This document shows positions 20,722 through 21,963 of a stretch of 62,899 nucleotides of DNA, one piece after another (position 1 is the first letter of the stretch; every line of letters begins with the position of its first letter). This DNA comes from Verrucomicrobiota bacterium. Lineage in GTDB: Bacteria > Verrucomicrobiota > Verrucomicrobiia > Opitutales > Opitutaceae. A program made the position numbers and the translations under genes. The notes beneath the pieces were generated by a model, which ran no database searches, was not told the origin of the DNA, and saw nothing but the letters and a program-made list of their open reading frames with translations. The stretch spans positions 1 through 62,899 of the forward strand of contig JAUVVA010000006.1 in NCBI GenBank assembly GCA_030604905.1, given 5' to 3'.

Positions 20722-21963
<1,242 letters not shown>

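What the first reader, a model, noticed from the sequence alone, without database searches (positions are those of the whole stretch)
21688..21690. Single in-frame amber codon in an otherwise intact trpB
The TrpB reading frame runs from the ATG at 21963 to 20722 in one frame and is broken only by TAG at 21688. The lysine that binds PLP (AHKINN) comes after the stop, so a truncated product could not work. The sequence on both sides is well conserved, so any loss must be recent. The codon before it (AGC, Ser, where Ile or Leu is expected) is also odd. Many genes here end in TAG (dCMP deaminase, sulP, opcA, DUF288), so TAG is not recoded genome-wide.
Basis: partly seen in the sequence, partly recalled or inferred. 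Interest (0 to 1): 0.75.

Follow-up and report, generated by a model that had tools for sequence, protein, structure and literature searches.

The report
Probable assembly error in bacterial trpB
A stop codon breaks the gene for the last enzyme of tryptophan synthesis in a draft genome of a bacterium, but it sits in a 30-base patch of three odd changes that looks more like a base-calling or assembly mistake than biology, and the genome carries a second, intact trpB-type gene anyway.

Summary
In detail: on the minus strand the TrpB frame 21963-20722 is intact except for TAG at 21688-21690, and no usable start lies between the stop and the PLP lysine codon. But the stop is not alone. Three single-base transversions fall within 30 bases (residues 91, 92, 101), all at columns invariant in the 12 of 14 genus relatives compared, with no silent change among them; elsewhere 63 of 74 changed codons are silent. 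Three random hits fall that close with probability 0.0016. This looks like one local event, not decay of a dead gene. The source is a draft genome, 234 contigs, 81% complete. The other 51 genomes of 57 with a TrpB match, and the 80 named relatives kept, show no internal stop. None of 33 tRNA matches has a CTA anticodon, and TAG is an ordinary stop here. A second intact TrpB-type gene lies on contig C209. Best reading: a consensus error (0.7). Main rival: a true, very recent nonsense mutation, perhaps tolerated because of the second gene (0.25). Recoding is unlikely (0.03). No reads were available, so the choice is inferred. Interest is low.

The parts
20722..21963 (-). trpB (tryptophan synthase beta) reading frame, 413 codons, broken by one internal TAG
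21688..21690 (-). in-frame TAG, residue 92; the column is Tyr in the 12 genus relatives compared (of 14), and Tyr 77 / Phe 3 in the 80 named relatives
21691..21693 (-). odd Ser codon just before the stop, residue 91; Ile in the 12 genus relatives compared; Ile 75 / Val 4 / Leu 1 in the 80 named relatives
21661..21663 (-). third odd codon, Ser, residue 101; Thr in the 12 genus relatives compared; Thr 79 / Ser 1 in the 80 named relatives; Ser also in 2 of 9 second-family TrpB proteins
21649..21651 (-). PLP-binding lysine codon of the AHK motif, downstream of the stop (active-site role from passages of PMC1854888 and recall)
20722..21627 (-). largest open part after the stop (GTG start, 301 aa); begins after the lysine, so not expected to work by itself
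18585..20600 (-). downstream neighbour, UvrD/PcrA-like helicase, open frame
22131..23468 (-). upstream neighbour, signal peptidase I (lepB), open frame

Best explanation
The TAG is most likely not in the living organism's genome. It is one of three wrong bases in a 30-base patch of the draft-genome consensus, as could arise where the assembler crossed a thinly covered spot on one poor read. The real gene would then be an ordinary intact trpB, working with the trpA elsewhere in the genome. Shown: the cluster, its place at invariant columns, its lack of silent changes, and a trpA without a stop. Inferred: that reads would disagree with the consensus, and that coverage is thin there.
For: Three single-base transversions relative to the nearest relative in 30 nt, all at columns invariant in 12 of 14 genus relatives; only one other own-unique change in the protein, a conservative one. 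Three random hits among 1242 nt fall within 30 nt with P = 0.0016; 3 of 4 unique changes falling this close among 332 invariant columns has P = 0.0095; both spans were set after seeing the data. In the patch 3 nonsilent and 0 silent changed codons, against 11 and 63 in the rest (Fisher P = 0.005): the patch looks free of selection, the rest does not. In four window genes (cysA, gdh, uvrD-like, trpB) single-base changes unique to this genome at invariant columns are 1 transition and 16 transversions, against 5 and 4 for the nearest relative (P = 0.01) and 14 and 36 for the others (P = 0.09). The source is a 234-contig, 80.94%-complete draft. The trpA match has no stop. No TrpB match listed other than this one has a stop. 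Eight other genomes with the second TrpB family all keep a main trpB without a stop. Passages of PMC4787001 report errors rising toward read ends, a bias to G as the substituting base on some platforms and a GG-ending preceding motif: two of the three odd bases are G on the coding strand, and one of the three follows CGG on the other strand.
Against: The site is mid-contig. No other broken gene was seen: 67 of 67 other family matches sampled in this genome have no stop (47, 8, 4, 3, 2, 2, 1), so the draft is not grossly error-ridden. Three unique changes within 12 codons also occur in 4 of 41 relative gene rows, though two of those four rows are divergent throughout. Two of the three odd bases do not follow a GG motif on either strand. 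Sequencing platform and depth are unknown. The transversion excess rests on four genes, is borderline against the wider relatives, and without the trpB trio falls to P = 0.018 and 0.16. Ser at residue 101 occurs in other TrpB proteins.
Confidence: 0.7

Rival explanations
1. A true, very recent nonsense mutation in this population, made together with its two neighbours by one multi-base mutation event. The cell is then either a tryptophan auxotroph or makes tryptophan with the second TrpB-type protein on contig C209.
For: The stop is in the consensus. A second TrpB-type gene, open and over the TrpB cut-off (506.6 bits), lies on C209; other parts of C209 match the nearest relative at 82-96% (five matches over 1000 bits besides trpB), so C209 belongs to this lineage. 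It keeps the AHK lysine and the [16 protein letters not shown] and NLSGRGDKD stretches. Precedent: trpB1 of Geobacter sulfurreducens is annotated as a frameshifted pseudogene in an operon with a trpB2 (PMC1854888, passages).
Against: Independent mutations in a dead gene would rarely cluster so tightly. The rest of the gene shows 63 silent to 11 nonsilent changed codons. The second TrpB is only 46% identical to the main one, differs in the stretch after MGA.D, and in the 8 other genomes where I saw it the main trpB is also present without a stop.
Confidence: 0.25
2. The TAG is read as an amino acid by suppression or recoding, giving a full-length TrpB.
For: The frame continues after the stop with normal conservation. 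The tRNA inventory may be incomplete because the assembly is 81% complete.
Against: 0 of 33 tRNA matches has a CTA anticodon. A C-terminal piece of a probable release factor 1 lies at a contig edge (241.7 bits, positions 201-358 of 361, under the whole-protein cut-off because it is cut). TAG ends 12 of 55 other window gene calls. The four other in-frame stop candidates in 174,424 own bases are all TGA. It would not explain the two flanking odd codons.
Confidence: 0.03
3. The stop-bearing stretch is a contaminant or strain chimera rather than random base errors.
For: Estimated contamination is 2.49%; the nearest relative itself shows an extra trpB 3' end at a contig edge (G013:C38).
Against: The bases around the patch match the nearest relative, and none of the 12 genus or 80 named relatives carries the patch. 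The helicase on one side and the region on the other side match the same relative at 93% and 81%, on other contigs of it.
Confidence: 0.02

Closest known systems
Tryptophan synthase beta chain, TrpB1 type (NCBIfam TIGR00263)
   Same: Full-length match across the break, 602 bits with a cut-off of 392.45
   Different: One internal TAG and two neighbouring departures at invariant columns
Geobacter sulfurreducens trpB1 pseudogene GSU2375 in an operon with a trpB2 (PMC1854888, passages read)
   Same: A broken main trpB in a genome that has another trpB-type gene
   Different: There a frameshift and a TrpB2-class partner in the same operon; here a stop inside a cluster of substitutions, and the other gene is TrpB1-like (506.6 bits to TIGR00263) on another contig
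Substitution errors in short-read sequence (profiles in PMC4787001 and PMC3622629, passages read)
   Same: Base substitutions without indels; two of three odd bases are G on the coding strand; one of three follows CGG on the other strand
   Different: Two of three do not follow a GG motif on either strand, and no reads were available

Membership tests
TrpB (TIGR00263) | Family-model score over the curated cut-off | tested here: met
   602 bits against 392.45, stop read through
TrpB (TIGR00263) | One uninterrupted reading frame that includes the PLP lysine | tested here: not met
   TAG at 21688-21690 precedes the lysine codon and no start lies between
Pseudogene by decay | Loss of purifying selection spread along the gene | tested here: not met
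   63 of 74 changed codons outside the patch are silent relative to the nearest relative
Pseudogene by decay | Stop present in the living population | not testable with these tools
   no reads or second isolate held
TAG recoding or suppression | tRNA with CTA anticodon | tested here: not met
   0 of 33 tRNA matches, in an incomplete assembly
TAG recoding or suppression | Loss of release factor 1 and rarity of TAG stops | tested here: not met
   C-terminal piece of a probable prfA present; TAG ends 12 of 55 other gene calls
Consensus or assembly error | Changes private to this assembly, clustered, blind to selection | tested here: met
   one multi-base mutation would look the same
Consensus or assembly error | Disagreement between reads and consensus | not testable with these tools
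   no reads held

The most novel reading that the evidence does not exclude
The stop is real: this lineage has just lost its main trpB in one multi-base mutation, and an orphan, unlinked TrpB1-like paralogue found across its family supplies tryptophan synthase, caught in the act of replacement.
Probability: 0.1. Interest if true: 0.4.

Novelty: not a real feature. Interest (0 to 1): 0.12.

Why it matters
If it is an error, it is a caution: a single in-frame stop in a draft genome should be tested for clustering with other odd changes at conserved columns before gene loss or recoding is claimed. If it is real, it would be a fresh replacement of a core biosynthetic enzyme by an orphan paralogue.

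Tried and rejected
Recoding: rejected on tRNAs, prfA and TAG usage. Restart after the stop: rejected, no ATG, GTG or TTG before the lysine. Donation of the odd patch by the second trpB: rejected, its sequence there differs. Gross assembly error rate: not supported, 67 of 67 other family matches have no stop. A stop flagged in one named relative (L065) proved to be that gene's own terminal stop. A GG-motif sequencing hot spot: fits one of three places, on one strand. A template switch between nearby inverted repeats was considered by eye only; no fit was seen. The cluster control is not clean: 4 of 41 relative gene rows also show three unique changes within 12 codons; two of those four rows (L219, L225) were dropped before the transition/transversion count. 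Two of 14 genus relatives (G002, no locus taken; G007, cut by a contig end) are not in the column comparison; neither has a stop in its TrpB match. Script failed because the loci were not all turned to the gene's strand; corrected. Paper searches: searches gave listings; one search found none and one irrelevant paper. Passages only were read, of PMC3622629, PMC4787001, PMC11917138 and PMC1854888.

Full report
What is there. The window is contig C198 of a 4.19-Mb draft genome in 234 contigs, 80.94% complete with 2.49% contamination. The ten best of the 80 named TrpB relatives kept are drafts labelled Opitutus, Opitutaceae, Opitutae or Verrucomicrobia. On the minus strand, 21963-20722 encodes TrpB with one TAG at 21690-21688. 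The gene stands between a UvrD/PcrA-like helicase and signal peptidase I. The upstream fragment has 91 residues. The downstream open part begins at GTG 21627, after the PLP lysine codon 21651-21649, with no ATG, GTG or TTG between stop and lysine.

The stop is not alone. Aligned with 12 of its 14 genus relatives, this protein differs at four columns where all the others agree: residues 91, 92 (the stop), 101 and 388; the last is a conservative change. The first three lie within 30 bases. Each is a single-base transversion relative to the nearest relative, G013. In the 80 named relatives the three columns hold Ile/Val/Leu, Tyr/Phe and Thr/Ser, and none has an internal stop (the one stop flagged, in L065, is the gene's own end). 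Ser at residue 101 is found in 1 of those 80 and in 2 of 9 second-family proteins, so that change may be harmless on its own.

Why one event. Three random hits in 1242 bases fall within 30 bases with probability 0.0016. Three of four unique changes falling that close among 332 invariant columns has probability 0.0095. Both spans were set after seeing the data. Inside the patch 3 of 3 changed codons are nonsilent; outside it 11 of 74 are (Fisher P = 0.005). A gene decaying after loss would collect changes along its length. This gene has not, so either a single multi-base mutation or a faulty stretch of consensus is needed.

Why error is the better choice. This is a draft genome, where a thinly covered spot can rest on one read (inference; depth is unknown). 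In four window genes the single-base changes unique to this genome at invariant columns are 1 transition and 16 transversions; for G013 5 and 4; for the other relatives 14 and 36 (two divergent rows dropped; P = 0.01 and 0.09). Without the trpB trio the comparison gives P = 0.018 and 0.16. About 2.4% of random substitutions in the window's called genes would make a stop, so one stop would fit a few dozen scattered errors; this is a rough inference from one event. Two of the three odd bases are G on the coding strand and one follows CGG on the other strand, which fits error profiles in PMC4787001 (passages) only in part. Against it: the site is mid-contig, 67 of 67 other family matches sampled in this genome carry no stop, and 4 of 41 relative gene rows also show three unique changes within 12 codons.

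Context. In one search, 52 of 57 genomes, this one included, have a TrpB match (51 over the cut-off; G007's is cut by a contig end); this is the only one with a stop in it. In this genome the trpA match on C178 has no stop, nor do four trpE-type matches, none over that family's cut-off and the best one cut by a contig end. A second TrpB-type gene, C209:9126-10391, scores 506.6 bits. Five other parts of C209 match G013 at 82-96% with over 1000 bits, so it belongs to this lineage. The second protein is 46% identical to the main one. Its family was also found in G013, G016, G019, G021, G033, G034, G035 and G055, at 65-92% identity; four C209 neighbour proteins tested were not found in the stretches fetched around it in those 8 genomes. 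All 8 also have a main trpB without a stop. So I have not seen it replace the main gene, though it could make a real loss survivable.

Recoding. All 33 tRNA matches were read and none has a CTA anticodon. A C-terminal piece of a probable release factor 1 is present at a contig edge. TAG ends 12 of 55 other window gene calls that have a stop. Recoding is not supported.

Verdict. The stop is truly in the deposited sequence; its biological reality is doubtful. I put 0.7 on a consensus error, 0.25 on a true clustered mutation, 0.03 on readthrough and 0.02 on a chimera. Reads would settle it.

Noticed in passing
window 10997-11029, 18118-18159, 41766-41809, 62582-62613; L117 12405-12442 and 12849-12889: Short tandem arrays of the seven-base unit GGTCATT are scattered in this genome, the four in the window between called genes, one on C209 inside the ybeY frame. 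In a simple scan period-7 arrays were 3 in the window (1 each at periods 6 and 9, 0 at the other periods from 4 to 12) and 8 in 111,525 bases of other own loci (0 at periods 5, 6, 8, 9; some bases counted twice). None was found in the 19,001 bases of G011 or the stretches of G013 scanned, but one search shows short 95-100% matches to the array elsewhere in G013 and in G005, G006 and G009.
   Followed up: partly
window 61442-61526 and 15588-15624: Two more seven-base arrays with other units: CTAGNNN about 12 times at the 3' end of the gene call 61523-62518, and a TTCGACC type. Period 7 seems favoured whatever the unit.
   Followed up: no
L117 (G000:C209) 9126-10391: A TrpB1-like paralogue family, seen in 9 genomes of the family and order (this one included), with a VDIAK stretch after MGA/MGE where the main TrpB has VDMERQ; the C209 neighbours tested are not beside it in the other eight.
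   Followed up: partly
window, whole: CTAG occurs 25 times against 83 expected from trinucleotide counts; 12 of the 25 lie in the one array at 61446-61523.
   Followed up: no
G013:C38:8893-9290: The nearest relative has an additional trpB 3' end at a contig edge, 90% identical to the window's trpB, besides its full copy on C256; perhaps strain mixture.
   Followed up: no
window 18585-29578: G013 matches the helicase (93%), trpB (91%) and the region from 22129 (81%) on three different contigs; its trpB contig shares with the window only trpB and near flanks, plus kinase-type matches near 70% elsewhere. This suggests that trpB sits at a rearranged place.
   Followed up: no
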